64,000 nucleotides of DNA from an uncultured Pelagibacteraceae bacterium (GTDB lineage: Bacteria; Pseudomonadota; Alphaproteobacteria; Pelagibacterales; Pelagibacteraceae). The notes below the pieces were generated by a model. The model searched no databases and was not told the DNA's origin. It was given only the letters and a program-made list of their open reading frames with translations. Each line of letters begins with the position of its first letter. Position 1 is the stretch's first letter. A program made the position numbers and the translations under genes. Below, in pieces: positions 28,314-35,134 of this stretch. Location: positions 1 through 64,000 of the forward strand of contig CACNFA010000003.1 in NCBI GenBank assembly GCA_902619675.1, read 5' to 3'.

Positions 28314-29297
28314 ATGTCTACTGTTGGAGGTTTATTCTCGGGTATTGGAGGTATTGAAACTGGTTTTGAAAAAGCTGGTTTTAAAATTCTTTGGTCAAAT
28401 GAAAATGATCCTTATAGCGTCCGAAGTTTTCAACATAACTATAAACATAAACTTTATCCTGATGATATAAGAAAATTAAATTTTAAGAAAATTAAGCCCG
28501 TTGATGTTTTAGTAGGGGGTTTTCCTTGCCAAGCTTTTTCTGTGGCCGGTTACCGAAAAGGATTTAGAGATCCTAGAGGTAATTTATTTTTTGAGATTTG
28601 TAGGGCGATTACTGAATTACCTAAAATGCCAAAAGCCATAATGTTAGAAAATGTAAAAAACATAAGAGGACATGACAACGGTAAAACTGCAAGAGTGATT
28701 ACAAAATCTTTAAGGGAATTGGGTTATTCTGTATTTTGGAATTTATTCAATACCTCTATACACACAGATATTCCACAAAACAGAGAAAGAACTTTTATAA
28801 TTGGTTTTAAGGACGAAGCTGACTGGGACTTTGAGCCGAACAAAAAAACTAGTAGCTCAATTTTCAATAGCCATTTACCTTTAGTAAAAAGCAAAGCAAA
28901 AAAAAAATTAAAAGAAATGTTTGATAAAGGCGATATTGATGAGAGATATTATTATAAACAAGATGCTTACATGTACAAACATTTGAAAAAGGCAATCGTT
29001 TCTAAAAATACAGTTTATCAATGGAGAAGAGTTTATGTTAGAGAAAACAAGAGTGGTGAGTGTCCAACTCTAACTGCCAACATGGGAACTGGTGGTCATA
29101 ATGTACCTTTAATAAAAGATGATTTAGGAATTAGGAAATTGACACCTCGAGAATGTTTAAATTTTCAAGGTTTCCCTAAAAGTTTTAAGTTTCCAGATGA
29201 TATGCCAATTTCACAAAGGTATAAGCAGGCAGGAAATGCTGTTACGGTAAACTTAATTCAAAAAATTGCTAAGATTTTAAATAAATCAATTGCTTAA
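28314..29297 (+). CDS. C5-cytosine DNA methyltransferase (type II)
   Basis: Motifs GLFSGIGGIETGFE, GGFPCQAFSVAG, LENVKNI, QNRERTFIIGF, LTPRECLNFQGFP, KQAGNAVTV. Confidence 0.95.
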   Translation: MSTVGGLFSGIGGIETGFEKAGFKILWSNENDPYSVRSFQHNYKHKLYPDDIRKLNFKKIKPVDVLVGGFPCQAFSVAGYRKGFRDPRGNLFFEICRAITELPKMPKAIMLENVKNIRGHDNGKTARVITKSLRELGYSVFWNLFNTSIHTDIPQNRERTFIIGFKDEADWDFEPNKKTSSSIFNSHLPLVKSKAKKKLKEMFDKGDIDERYYYKQDAYMYKHLKKAIVSKNTVYQWRRVYVRENKSGECPTLTANMGTGGHNVPLIKDDLGIRKLTPRECLNFQGFPKSFKFPDDMPISQRYKQAGNAVTVNLIQKIAKILNKSIA

Positions 29298-29909
29298 ATC
29301 TCCTTCAAATATAGGTTTCAGTTTTAGAGGCTCTACTATTTTTGCTCTTACATCAAATCTTGGGCGTTGACCTGTTTTTTGTGCTTTTTGCTTAACAGTT
29401 TCCCTTTCATTAACCATCGTATTATCAATTTGAGCGTTTGAAATTTCATAAATTTTATATTTACCGTCAATTTTTTTATCCGCAAAAAAATCTATAAAAT
29501 AATAGATATCCTGCTCAGAACGTGGCCCGAATTGACTAGGACCGCTAGATGAAGACCCTTTTATTTGAATTCTTTTTTTAGTTTTTTCATCAAAACAATC
29601 AAAAGAAGTTGAGAAATTACTTCCTTTGTGACTTATTAGTTTTCCTATTTTAAGATCTAAGCAAACTATAGCTTCAGATAAAGCCTCAGGTAAGTTCACA
29701 CTTCTTGTTGCGTATAAATCTTTTTTAAGCGTCTCGCTCAAAGTTTTCCACATATTAAAACTATTTTTTAATATTTCTTTGTCTGATTCCTCAAAGTATA
29801 AAAGATTTAAAGTAATAACTTTTTTGCCCTTTTTTAATTTAAATTTTTTATTTTTCACTTTATTATTATGACATTTGATATTTAAGGTTTCAAAAAGATA
29901 ATTTCCCAT
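29286..29909 (-). CDS. Putative type II restriction endonuclease, Bsp6I-like
   Basis: Convergent with and overlapping the MTase by 12 nt; FDCFDEKTKKRIQIKGSSSSGPSQFGPRSEQD resembles a PD-(D/E)xK-type D..QxK core; Bsp6I assignment from memory. Confidence 0.7.
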   Translation of the reverse strand: MGNYLFETLNIKCHNNKVKNKKFKLKKGKKVITLNLLYFEESDKEILKNSFNMWKTLSETLKKDLYATRSVNLPEALSEAIVCLDLKIGKLISHKGSNFSTSFDCFDEKTKKRIQIKGSSSSGPSQFGPRSEQDIYYFIDFFADKKIDGKYKIYEISNAQIDNTMVNERETVKQKAQKTGQRPRFDVRAKIVEPLKLKPIFEGDLSN

Positions 29910-30651: not shown

Positions 30652-31681
30652 GATCCTCATAGGGTTAATTGCTGGAATTTTTATTGGCTGGGTCCTAAAA
30701 AATCTATTTTCTAAAAAAGAAAATTTGGGGGATCTAGCCAGTAATTTAAAGGCGTTAGAGACTAAAATAGATGGGTATCATACAGCAAATACTTCTGAAC
30801 GTGGTTCTTTAAAAACTATTTTAGAAGATATTAAGAAAGGCGAAGCAGATGTAGTTAAATCTGCTGAAGATATTAAAAGAACTCTTGTTACAGGTGGATC
30901 TCAAAACCAAGGCTCATGGGGGGAGCTGGTTTTAAAAAGAATTCTAACAGAAAACTTAAGATTTACTGAAGGGGAAGAATTTGAAGTACATAAAAGTTTT
31001 AATGAGGAGGATGGAAGAAAAATCCCAGATGTTATTATACATTTTCCCGATGGCAGAGATGTAATAGTAGACTCAAAAGTTTCTTTAAAAGCTTGGGATG
31101 AATATGTGAATGCTACTGATGAAAGAGAAAAAGAAGATGCACTTAAAAGACATAAGCTATCACTTCAAACGCATATTGATACGTTAGCGAAAAAAAATTA
31201 TCAAGGTATTAAAGGAATAAAAACTATTGATACAGTTGTTATGTTTTGCCCTAACGAGTCAGCTATTTCTATTTTACCTAGACAAGGCGGTAGTAAGTTA
31301 TTTGAATACGCAATAAAAAATAAAATAACTCTAGCATCACCTAGTATATTCTATTACATGTTAAAAACAGCAGAGTATTCTTGGAGAGCAGATAAACAAA
31401 GCAAAAATGTTGCTGATATTATTAAGTTAGCTAATCTTGTTAGTGCTCAAGCAGTAGATATTTACGGAAGTGCCAAAAAAGCTCAAGAAGCTATTTCCAA
31501 CGCGTCTGGCAAAACTGCTGAAGTGATGGAAAAAATTCAAGATGGAGCTGGAAGTTTCCTTAGCAGAATACAAAGAATGAATAAGCTAGGTCTTTCTCCT
31601 AAAAAACAAGTTCCAATAGAAGTAGAGGAAGACGAGAGTGAAGTTGTCAAAATAGAAGATAAGAAAAGGAATATAAAGTAA
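30629..31681 (+). CDS. rmuC: DNA recombination protein RmuC
   Basis: GSWGELVLKRILTENLRFTEGEEFEV, VIVDSKVSLKAWDEY. Confidence 0.93.
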   Translation: MINLLSLEILIGLIAGIFIGWVLKNLFSKKENLGDLASNLKALETKIDGYHTANTSERGSLKTILEDIKKGEADVVKSAEDIKRTLVTGGSQNQGSWGELVLKRILTENLRFTEGEEFEVHKSFNEEDGRKIPDVIIHFPDGRDVIVDSKVSLKAWDEYVNATDEREKEDALKRHKLSLQTHIDTLAKKNYQGIKGIKTIDTVVMFCPNESAISILPRQGGSKLFEYAIKNKITLASPSIFYYMLKTAEYSWRADKQSKNVADIIKLANLVSAQAVDIYGSAKKAQEAISNASGKTAEVMEKIQDGAGSFLSRIQRMNKLGLSPKKQVPIEVEEDESEVVKIEDKKRNIK

Positions 31682-33159
31682 TGCCTAATATAGCAGTACT
31701 AGACTATGAGGCTCAATCAGCCTCGACATCTTACGGAAAAATTATTTCTGTAACAGGAATTCTTTACAACGATCAATTTCAAGAGCTAGACCGTTTTGAA
31801 TTATTCTGTAGAAATGTCCTAGGGTATATCCCAGATCCTTATAGTCTTTGGGTTAATAAAGGTTTAAAGAAATTAAAAGACTCTAACATGAGCCATTACC
31901 AACTAATGCTGGAAATGCACAAAAAAATAAATCAATGGTCACCTTGTATTTGGGCGACGTGGAATGGACACGGGTATGATTATCCACTTTGTGAGAAAGA
32001 AAATTATAGATCTCTTTTACCTATATACATTTTAAAAACAAATGGTAATGAAGCAGCAGATTTCTTGCCATTTGCAAGAGCAGCAAAACTTTTCTATCCT
32101 AAGTCTCTTGAAACTTCTTACTCAAGTTCTAACAATCCCGTATTTAAACTCGAGGATTTGGGAATGAAAAATTTTCCAGAAACAGATAAAAGTAAATTTC
32201 ATACAGCCACGCAAGATGTAGAAATCACAGCCAAAGTCATGAATAAAGTAAAACAGACAGCGAAACCTATCTTTGACTCCTCATTAATGACCATCTCTAA
32301 GCAAAAGGCCAAAGATCAAATTGTGAATAATAAAATGTTTACTACAGCTCTTTATTACTTTGGTAAATCAAGACCCTTTGCCTGTACGTATTTATTCGAC
32401 CACCCAGAATATACTTGGCCCATGGTTTATTGTCTTGAAGTGGATCCAAAGGAGTTAATACAATTAGATTTTAAATCATTAAAAGAAAAAATGAAAAAAC
32501 CGGGAAAATTTATTCGACCCATACCTTTGAAACATCCAGTAATTCTCCATGAAAGTTATGCGTTAAAATCAGAACCTTTTAGGACTCTAGGTTTAGATAA
32601 ACTTAAAGAGCGAGCTGAATTAGTTAGAAATAGCCCAACTTTTATAGAAAATCTTAAAAGAGCAGTGAAAGAAAATGCAGAGGAGAAAAAATTGAAATAT
32701 AGTTCTAAGGAAGACGAACGTACTGCTAACGATCCACATAATCAATTATATAGTGGAGGGTTTTTAGATAAAAATAGTCCTGACTACGATATCATTCAGA
32801 AATTTCATACCTTAGATTGGGACAAAAGGTATGAACAAGTGATGAAAATAAAGGATCCAAGATTTAAGTATTTTGGAGAAAGATTAATATATCAAAATGA
32901 ACCAGAAGCTTTACCTTCAGAAGCTTATCAAAGGATTCATAAAGAAACAGCTGAAAGAGTTTTGAGGCTAGAGGAAAAAAACTTTACTACAATTCCAATG
33001 GCAGAGCATTTAATTGATAGTATACGAGCTGAAAAAGACGTACCCAAGGAAAAATTAGACTACATGAATGAAGTTGATGAAATGATTAAAGAAATGAGAA
33101 TTATATTCGAGAAAGCTTTATCAGGACAATTCTCAACTAAAAAAAAGGATATAGCTTGA
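31681..33159 (+). CDS. DEDD-family exonuclease, exodeoxyribonuclease I (SbcB)-like
   Basis: VLDYEAQSAS, WNGHGYDYP, FKLEDLGMKNF, HTATQDVEITAKVM. Confidence 0.75.
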   Translation: MPNIAVLDYEAQSASTSYGKIISVTGILYNDQFQELDRFELFCRNVLGYIPDPYSLWVNKGLKKLKDSNMSHYQLMLEMHKKINQWSPCIWATWNGHGYDYPLCEKENYRSLLPIYILKTNGNEAADFLPFARAAKLFYPKSLETSYSSSNNPVFKLEDLGMKNFPETDKSKFHTATQDVEITAKVMNKVKQTAKPIFDSSLMTISKQKAKDQIVNNKMFTTALYYFGKSRPFACTYLFDHPEYTWPMVYCLEVDPKELIQLDFKSLKEKMKKPGKFIRPIPLKHPVILHESYALKSEPFRTLGLDKLKERAELVRNSPTFIENLKRAVKENAEEKKLKYSSKEDERTANDPHNQLYSGGFLDKNSPDYDIIQKFHTLDWDKRYEQVMKIKDPRFKYFGERLIYQNEPEALPSEAYQRIHKETAERVLRLEEKNFTTIPMAEHLIDSIRAEKDVPKEKLDYMNEVDEMIKEMRIIFEKALSGQFSTKKKDIA

Positions 33160-33523: not shown

Positions 33524-33884
33524 ATGCCAATAAAAAAAGTTTCAGATAATACATTTAAAAAAGAGGTTTTAGAAAATTCTAAACCAGTTGTTGCTAAGTT
33601 CGAAGCCAGCTGGTGTGGTGTTTAGTCCCCTCATTTTAAATGGGGGGATGATTTCAAAAGGTCCATGTAAACAACTTACTCCAATAGTCGAAAAAATATC
33701 AGACGAAATGACAAATGTTGATTTTGTATCTTTAGACATAGAAGAAGCAGTTAATGTTAGCACCGAGTTTTCAATACGCTCAGTGCCGCAAATGTACATT
33801 TTAAAAGATGGAAAAGTAGTTTCACAAAAAGTTGGAGCCTCAGATTACAATACAGTCTCCGCTTGGATAAAAGATAACGTCTAG
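33524..33884 (+). CDS. trxA: Thioredoxin, interrupted inside WCGPC by a 43-nt insertion (bypass element, or disrupted gene)
   Basis: 33524-33619 encodes MPIKKVSDNTFKKEVLENSKPVVAKFEASWCG; GTT TAG follows; 33663-33884 encodes PCKQLTPIVEKISDEMTNVDFVSLDIEE...DNV*. Confidence 0.85.
33620..33662 (+). other. 43-nt hairpin-bearing intervening sequence with GGT codons at both boundaries
   Basis: GGT|GTTTAGTCCCCTCATTTTAAATGGGGGGATGATTTCAAAAGGT|CCA; stem TCCCCTCAT/ATGGGGGGA. Confidence 0.85.
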
Positions 33885-35134
33885 TTCTGATTTAATATAT
33901 TGCCACAGTTATAGAGGCTACCAAAACATACTATAAGCTTTTTTTCTTTACTACTAATTTTTGTCAAAGCAGTTTTAAAATTATCAGCTACTTCAGAAGC
34001 AATATTATTTCGAGACGCAATTTTATTTAGCAGGTCTGGATTGACCGAATTTTCATTTTCTATAGGCATTGTAACTACTTTTTTAAATATACCTTTTAAA
34101 TTTTTTAGAAATAAATCGGGTTCTTTGTTTTTAGACATAGCCCAAATACCGTATATAGGTAATTTTATTGTTTTAAGATACTTATATAAATTAAGACTAT
34201 CTGCAGGGCTATGTGCTCCATCAATCATTATAGTCTCATTTTTGTGAAGCTTATTTTTAATTTTTCCATGGTTTAAATATTGATAACGACCTTCAAATTT
34301 AAGTGATGGTAAAGTTTTTTGGATAATCTTTTTATCAATATTAAGATCAAGAGCTACTTTGATGGCTAAACAAACATTTTCGAACATACCTTTCGAATAA
34401 ACATTTTTAGTATTGAGAGAAATTTTTGTACTTTTGTCCAGGTAATAATATGAATTACCAGCTCTGACTATTTTCCAAGCGCTAGGATAAACTATATTAC
34501 TTTTGTTATTTTTAAGGTGAACTTTTATTTTTTTTAAAACATTTGGAGTTTGTTTTGATATATAAATTCTTCCAAAATGACTTAAATAAGCAACGTCCTC
34601 TTTAATAACTTGATCCAAAGTTTTTATTTTTAAAAAATTTAAATGTTGTTTATTGATATTTGTACAGATCTGAATCTTTGGAAAATCAGTAATATTATTG
34701 CTGTCGAGTTTCCAAAAACAACCTGTTTCCATAATATTATAGTCAGCATTAATCTTAGAAGCATTGATAATGTAAACTAAAGTCAGACACTCAAAAACAC
34801 TTAAAGGAATCTTTAATTTTTCGATCTCTTTAATTGTTTCTCTAATTTTTTTATGAGAGAGATATTCGTTACCTATATAGAATCTTTCACTTATATCTTT
34901 AATTGACGGACTGACGTGTGCTGTTACAGTTTGATTATTTGCTTCAATAAACGATCTTAACGTATGTAAAGTTGTGAATTTTCCAGATTCCCCTACTACA
35001 TTTATTATATTTTTTAATCTTCTTTCTGGATTTCCTAATAGATTAAGAGCAAGCTTTATCCTTTTAAGACCAAACTTAACAGATTTATTAAATAATTTAT
35101 GATTAGCTAGCTGATTGTAGATCAACTTTGACAT
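33881..35134 (-). CDS. folC: Folylpolyglutamate/dihydrofolate synthase family (divergent)
   Basis: Position after accD; GESGKFTT, HVSPSIKDISERF, DGAHSPAD, FGSLYNCG. Confidence 0.8.
   Translation of the reverse strand: MSKLIYNQLANHKLFNKSVKFGLKRIKLALNLLGNPERRLKNIINVVGESGKFTTLHTLRSFIEANNQTVTAHVSPSIKDISERFYIGNEYLSHKKIRETIKEIEKLKIPLSVFECLTLVYIINASKINADYNIMETGCFWKLDSNNITDFPKIQICTNINKQHLNFLKIKTLDQVIKEDVAYLSHFGRIYISKQTPNVLKKIKVHLKNNKSNIVYPSAWKIVRAGNSYYYLDKSTKISLNTKNVYSKGMFENVCLAIKVALDLNIDKKIIQKTLPSLKFEGRYQYLNHGKIKNKLHKNETIMIDGAHSPADSLNLYKYLKTIKLPIYGIWAMSKNKEPDLFLKNLKGIFKKVVTMPIENENSVNPDLLNKIASRNNIASEVADNFKTALTKISSKEKKLIVCFGSLYNCGNILNQN

What the first reader, a model, noticed from the sequence alone, without database searches (positions are those of the whole stretch)
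33524..33884. Thioredoxin split inside WCGPC by a 43-nt hairpin segment with matched GGT codons: possible chromosomal translational-bypass (byp-like) element
Seen: frame from ATG 33524 ends ...FEASWCG-V-stop (GGT 33617-33619, GTT, TAG 33623-33625). Thioredoxin resumes at CCA 33663 (PCKQLTPIVEK...DNV*) in a different frame. The intervening segment is 43 nt (not a multiple of 3), ends in a second GGT (33660-33662), and folds as TCCCCTCAT-tttaa-ATGGGGGGA. Skipping from GGT to GGT yields an intact 105-aa thioredoxin. Established: T4 gene 60 and yeast mitochondrial byp elements use matched take-off and landing codons (GGA) flanking a non-coding gap with a hairpin; T4 also has a stop just after take-off. 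The rest of the gene shows no decay. Inference: bypass or RNA removal, a tiny insertion with a 3-bp GGT duplication, or gene disruption/assembly artefact.
Basis: partly seen in the sequence, partly recalled or inferred. Interest (0 to 1): 0.88.

Follow-up and report, generated by a model that had tools for sequence, protein, structure and literature searches.

The report
Ribosome-skipped hairpin splitting SAR11 thioredoxin
In at least 16 species of SAR11 ocean bacteria the gene for thioredoxin is interrupted, inside its catalytic motif, by a 41-52-base hairpin with a stop codon, yet both halves stay under strong selection, so the cell probably makes its ribosomes skip (or otherwise removes) the hairpin, as phage T4 does in gene 60.

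Summary
The only recognisable thioredoxin in this SAR11 (Pelagibacteraceae) genome stops at TAG two codons after WC-GGT. It resumes out of frame 43 nt later at GGT-CCA, after a hairpin.

I found the same arrangement, at the same WC|GPC site of the same exonuclease-trx-folC locus, in 15 more genomes of at least three genera. Gaps are 41-52 nt, in all three frame classes. The hairpins differ strongly, and in the major subtype the stem covaries (6 of 16 pairs changed on both sides, 100% of cells paired). An in-frame stop always lies 2-3 codons after the first Cys codon. In that subtype TGA, TAG and TAA replace each other while the opposite arm compensates.

Both halves are under strong purifying selection (dN/dS mostly 0.03-0.1). 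Seven genomes have no start codon that could make a second chain containing the motif. Closely related intact alleles exist. Each genome has one element, only in trx; RtcB ligase is absent.

Best reading: a chromosomal, T4-gene-60-like translational bypass (about 60%); the joined product is likely (about 85%), its mechanism inferred. The matched-GGT argument holds in this genome but not generally. Excision from the mRNA is the main rival.

The parts
33524..33619 (+). N-terminal half of thioredoxin (MPIKKV...FEASWCG)
   Evidence: Pfam PF00085 7e-6; dN/dS 0.10 against G023
33617..33619 (+). GGT (Gly), proposed take-off codon
   Evidence: sequence; inference from comparison of 16 loci
33623..33625 (+). 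in-frame TAG stop, one codon after take-off; a stop lies 2-3 codons after TGY in all 16 loci
33620..33662 (+). 43-nt non-coding gap (41-52 nt in relatives)
33625..33649 (+). hairpin, 11 bp (33625-33635 / 33639-33649); compensated change in G023
33660..33662 (+). second GGT, proposed landing codon (GGC in G023, AGC in G137/G168/G141)
33663..33884 (+). C-terminal half of thioredoxin from CCA (PCKQLTP...KDNV, stop)
   Evidence: Pfam PF00085 8e-15; dN/dS 0.04 against G023
31681..33159 (+). upstream exonuclease gene (Exonuc_X-T_C), syntenic neighbour
33881..35134 (-). downstream folC-like gene, syntenic neighbour (name from synteny and similarity among loci; no Pfam match below 0.001)
   Evidence: synteny

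Best explanation
The segment is a programmed translational-bypass element in the resident trxA gene of several SAR11 lineages. Shown: the gene is split inside WC|GPC by 41-52 nt carrying an immediate stop and a selected hairpin, both halves are under selection, and no alternative start makes a second chain in many genomes. Inferred: the ribosome reaches the codon before or at the stop, stalls at the stop/hairpin, its peptidyl-tRNA releases the codon, the hairpin refolds behind it, and it re-pairs (two or three base pairs) with an NGN codon 5-12 nt beyond the stem. It then continues to give full-length thioredoxin with a CXPC-type active site. In this genome the step would be GGT (33617) to GGT (33660), resuming at CCA.
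For: Same site and synteny in 16 genomes of at least 3 genera. Both halves conserved, dN/dS mostly 0.03-0.10. Gap lengths fall in all three frame classes, so frameshift or readthrough cannot be the common mechanism. An in-frame stop is the 2nd or 3rd codon after TGY in 16/16; about 0.22 is expected per independent lineage at this base composition. In the CGA-stop subtype the stop is TGA, TAG or TAA, with the 3' arm compensated at the same columns (columns 9-10; 0/500 shuffles reach the covariation score). This argues that the stop itself, and therefore translation, matters. The 5' arm carries TGT-CGA-stop just as T4's take-off stem carries GAT-GGA-TAG. All gaps are below 56 nt, up to which T4 sliding stays processive (PMC11194080). 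The codon before CCN has middle G in 16/16. No RtcB, no Rfam match, one copy per genome.
Against: No RNA or protein data. Take-off and landing codons match fully or by wobble in G000, G023, G153, G582 and G544, but only 2 of 3 bases in G137/G168/G141. In the CGA subtype the take-off codon is ambiguous (TGT, giving CGPC by poor pairing, or CGA, giving CRGPC or CRPC). In G000, G023, G582 and G544 the stop is one codon after the presumed take-off codon, not adjacent as in T4. No T4-like nascent-peptide signal was recognised by eye. Exact excision would always give CGPC.
Confidence: 0.6

Rival explanations
1. The hairpin is removed from the mRNA, a mini-intron of 41-52 nt, by an unknown nuclease plus ligase or by self-cleavage, always leaving a TGY-GGN-CCN-TGY (CGPC) junction.
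For: One excision restores CGPC and frame in all 16 loci without any codon-matching rule. The stem base pairs with the 5' boundary (TGGTGT) and ends 5-12 nt before the 3' boundary. Closely related empty alleles are exact.
Against: No bacterial splicing of this kind is known to me; no Rfam ribozyme or intron match; RtcB absent from all 11 split genomes tested. It gives no reason for a stop at codon 2-3 kept by covarying TGA/TAG/TAA.
Confidence: 0.2
2. The two halves are made as separate chains (termination, then re-initiation) and assemble into a split thioredoxin.
For: In G000 an in-frame ATG follows a G-run just before the C-terminal half. Both halves are conserved. Fragments of E. coli thioredoxin can reassemble (from memory).
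Against: Seven genomes in at least five lineages (G023, G153, G582, G544, G378, G379, G213) have no ATG/GTG/TTG between the last upstream stop and the PC codons; in G378 a TGA directly precedes GGA-CCC. Re-initiation further down would lose the second active-site Cys.
Confidence: 0.1
3. Broken gene: pseudogene, or a selfish palindrome with thioredoxin supplied by another gene.
For: Genomes are incomplete (G000 80.7%), so a second trx could be missing.
Against: Low dN/dS on both sides within three independent split groups. Recurrent at the same codon. G168 (95% complete) shows only the split trx plus weak 177-aa TlpA/DsbE-like relatives. The element is found nowhere else in the genomes.
Confidence: 0.06
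4. Assembly or sequencing artefact.
For: All sources are draft genomes, at least partly metagenomic or single-cell.
Against: Same site in 16 separate assemblies with different but internally compensated hairpins; one record is named as isolate AG-918-M15.
Confidence: 0.02

Closest known systems
Phage T4 gene 60 programmed translational bypassing (50-nt gap)
   Same: Non-coding gap of similar length (41-52 vs 50 nt); stop at or just after the take-off site; take-off codon and stop inside the 5' arm of a stable hairpin in the CGA subtype (T4 GAT-GGA-TAG-CC-UUCG...); frame differs before and after; middle G shared by proposed take-off and landing codons.
   Different: Chromosomal, in a cellular redox gene; longer stems (10-21 bp); landing codon often only partly matched; stop not adjacent in four loci; no recognised nascent-peptide signal; no homing-endonuclease gene seen beside the loci that I read.
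Bypassing elements (byps) of Magnusiomyces capitatus mitochondria
   Same: Short non-coding inserts in conserved genes, not always with perfectly matched codons (PMC5009743).
   Different: Byps are numerous (81 in one mitochondrial genome); here one copy per genome, always in trx at one site, in bacteria.
Self-splicing group I/II introns or archaeal bulge-helix-bulge introns
   Same: Precise interruption of a conserved active-site motif; exact empty alleles exist.
   Different: 41-52 nt only; no Rfam hit; no RtcB.
Prevotella loescheii adhesin 29-nt hop (reported; not followed up, see PMC5009743)
   Same: Chromosomal bacterial gap in a coding sequence.
   Different: Single unconfirmed case; here a recurrent family backed by comparative evidence.

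Membership tests
T4 gene 60-type programmed bypass | one protein made from two ORFs separated by an untranslated gap retained in the mRNA | not testable with these tools
   no RNA or protein data; selection on both halves is only consistent with it
T4 gene 60-type programmed bypass | stop codon directly after the take-off codon | tested here: inconclusive
   direct in G137, G168, G141 and G153, and in the CGA subtype if CGA is the take-off; one codon later in G000, G023, G582, G544
T4 gene 60-type programmed bypass | take-off hairpin beginning at or before the take-off codon | tested here: inconclusive
   stem starts 2-6 nt before the end of TGY in 11 loci (met), 7-9 nt after it in the 5 fam1/1b loci including the window
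[quoted passage not shown]
   GGT/GGT in the window; GGT/GGC, GGG/GGA elsewhere; GGT/AGC and the CGA subtype only partly matched
T4 gene 60-type programmed bypass | gap short enough for processive sliding (<=56 nt, PMC11194080) | tested here: met
   41-52 nt in 16/16
T4 gene 60-type programmed bypass | nascent-peptide stimulator (KKYK-like) in the first ORF | not tested
   no obvious difference between split and intact N-terminal halves seen by eye
Mitochondrial byp elements | multicopy inserts spread over many genes of one genome | tested here: not met
   only trx, one per genome
Group I/II or other known ribozyme introns | covariance-model match | tested here: not met
   no Rfam match near any gathering score
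Endonuclease + RtcB splicing (tRNA/HAC1-like) | RtcB ligase in the genome | tested here: not met
   0 of 20 genomes including all 11 split genomes of the genus; control genomes rang; other ligases not tested
Thioredoxin (trxA) | PF00085 over cut-off with CXPC motif when the halves are joined | tested here: met
   91.4 bits, cut-off 23.5

The most novel reading that the evidence does not exclude
A hitherto undescribed class of bacterial mini-intron: 41-52-nt hairpins precisely removed from trx mRNA in SAR11 by an unknown, RtcB-independent machinery, recurrently placed in the thioredoxin active-site codons.
Probability: 0.2. Interest if true: 0.97.

Novelty: new variant of a known kind. Interest (0 to 1): 0.87.

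Why it matters
High-efficiency bypassing is established for essentially one phage gene and one group of yeast mitochondria; the review read here calls for cases outside inactivating inserts. A family of at least 16 natural variants in a household gene of SAR11, among the most abundant marine bacteria, would supply the comparative data that T4 cannot: which codons, stems and spacings are needed, and whether bypass serves a purpose. Annotation pipelines presumably call such genes broken, so other cases may be hidden. If RNA removal proves right instead, it would be a new kind of bacterial splicing.

Tried and rejected
(1) Repeat or mobile element: exact, near and covariance searches found no copy outside trx; weak R2 hits in other genera look like intergenic, terminator-like palindromes. 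(2) Simple frameshift or readthrough: gap lengths mod 3 are 0, 1 and 2, and G023 has a TGA in the resuming frame. UGA/selenocysteine: stops are TAA, TAG and TGA. (3) Split protein: no starts in seven genomes. (4) Stop reassignment: TAA, TAG and TGA all end ORFs in the window (34/9/13). (5) Known RNA: no Rfam hit. (6) RtcB splicing: absent. (7) Phage origin: only <60%-identity phage thioredoxins; viral contigs gave only distant relatives. (8) 38 genus members without a trx hit: six had folC; three of these have intact divergent trx (CSPC/CAPC/CSAC), the rest were cut or uninformative. (9) Number of origins: folC and trx trees need 6 and 7 changes (at least 5 and 4 forced by supported branches), but alleles recombine and trx is short, so gain and loss cannot be separated. 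(10) Literature: no paper found on this.

Full report
OBSERVATION. The ATG frame at 33524 reads to WCG-V-TAG (stop 33623-33625). Thioredoxin resumes at GGT-CCA (33660) in another frame. The 43 nt between fold into a hairpin (33625-33649, -15.5 kcal/mol). Joined across the two GGT codons the gene encodes 105 aa and scores 91.4 bits against PF00085; the halves score 26.4 and 55.1. The genome (958,907 bases, 80.7% complete) has no other canonical thioredoxin. The remaining PF00085 hits are two 177-aa TlpA/DsbE-like frames (naming by length and similarity, inference). No second copy of the segment exists.

RECURRENCE. Among 169 genomes of the genus, ten more carry trx split at the same place: G023; G137, G168, G141; G091, G172, G112, G088, G153; G134. 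A pattern for TGGTGY...GGNCCNTGY with a 30-56-nt gap over 397 family genomes found five more in two other genera: G582, G544, G378, G379 and G213. All were verified as thioredoxin by reading both halves. The locus is syntenic, exonuclease-(small ORF)-trx-folC, in split and intact genomes and across genera. This is therefore the resident trx. Close intact relatives exist: G115, G067 and G132 at 84-85% identity to a split sequence, and G124, G142 and G097 at 61-63%.

ANATOMY. After the first active-site Cys codon the sequences read: G000 GGT-GTT-TAG; G023 GGT-TTT-TAG; G137/G168/G141 GGT-TAA; G153 GGG-TGA; G582/G544 GGG-GAG-TAA; G134/G091/G172/G112/G088 CGA-TGA; G378/G379 CGA-TAG; G213 CGA-TAA. 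Then comes a hairpin of 10-21 bp, a spacer of 5-12 nt, an NGN codon, and CCN-TGY. The distance from TGY to that NGN codon is 41, 43, 45, 46, 48, 49, 51 or 52 nt, covering all three classes mod 3. The stop is the 2nd or 3rd codon in every case; at 30% GC about 22% of random inserts would have one that early.

In the CGA-type subtype (with G153) the stem runs back into the TGGTGT exon codons. Counted on the five distinct arm sequences, all 80 cells pair, and 6 of 16 pairs change on both sides. The covariation score is 0.575 against 0.300 in shuffles (0/500) and at most 0.138 when slid. The variable columns include the 2nd and 3rd bases of the stop: TGA, TAG and TAA each face a compensated partner. 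Selection therefore seems to keep both the pairing and the stop. Six of the loci gave an earlier covariation count. G000 and G023 also differ by a compensated pair.

SELECTION. dN/dS of the two halves is 0.10 and 0.04 (G000-G023), 0-0.06 in the G137 group, and mostly 0-0.10 in the G091 group; one pair reaches 0.20 on two changes. The split gene is functional. G168, 95% complete, has no other canonical thioredoxin in the searches made.

MECHANISM. Decay, artefact, frameshift, readthrough and a two-chain protein are excluded as the common explanation (see rejected list). Two remain: translational bypass and removal from the mRNA. For bypass: the conserved and covarying stop, which only a translating ribosome would read; the T4-like architecture (T4 stem GATGGATAGCC-TTCG-GGCTATCTAT with take-off GGA and stop TAG in its 5' arm, 50-nt gap, against GTGTCGATAGTCCCC...GGGGACTATCGATAC); gap lengths within the processive range of T4 sliding (PMC11194080); and an NGN codon at the landing position in 16/16 (five of the 16 were found with a pattern that required it). 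[quoted passage not shown] For removal: one cut restores CGPC everywhere, and codon matching is imperfect. RtcB is absent from every split genome tested and no ribozyme family matches.

UNCERTAIN DETAIL. In the CGA subtype I cannot tell whether take-off is at TGT (product CGPC, poor pairing in G134 and G378) or at CGA (tRNA-Arg with inosine would fit the middle and third base of the NGH codon in all eight CGA loci, but gives CRGPC; landing on GGN gives CRPC). Intact relatives vary at this residue (G, Q, N, S, E), so it is not fixed. Proteomics would settle it.

WHY THERE? Unknown. The trx locus looks like an allelic hot spot (strongly divergent trx and exonuclease alleles). T7-like phages elsewhere recruit host thioredoxin (general knowledge), so an arms race or protection from a nuclease, as proposed for T4 gene 60 (PMC5009743), are ideas only.

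LIMITS. Nearly all data are draft genomes with one genome per species; there are no RNA or protein data. The family-wide search required GGN and its list was truncated, so counts are lower bounds.

Noticed in passing
window 28314-29909: C5-cytosine methyltransferase (PF00145) next to an opposite-strand Bsp6I-like restriction endonuclease (PF09504): a complete-looking type II restriction-modification pair, which I would not expect in a streamlined SAR11 genome.
   Followed up: partly
trx loci L039, L163, L166, L231, L232, L233: Intact thioredoxins at the same locus vary at the normally invariant active site: CQPC, CNPC, CSPC, CAPC, CSAC, CEPC, some with a non-Trp residue before the first Cys.
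   Followed up: partly
window 31681-33159; L037, L156, L163, L166: The exonuclease upstream of trx is about 58-91% identical among a few genomes (G000, G023, G153, G132, G151) but about 33% to most others in the genus, which suggests allele exchange around trx.
   Followed up: no
L207-L209, L212, L213, L221, L223-L225: Intergenic palindromes (for example TGAGCCCAC...GTGGGCTCA) resembling the hairpin of the CGA-TGA subtype sit at one recurrent intergenic position in another Pelagibacteraceae genus; they look like terminators.
   Followed up: no
L149, L148 (G168, G137): folC is only about 30% identical to that of the window in the G137/G168 group although the trx halves are about 60% identical, so trx and folC histories differ.
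   Followed up: no
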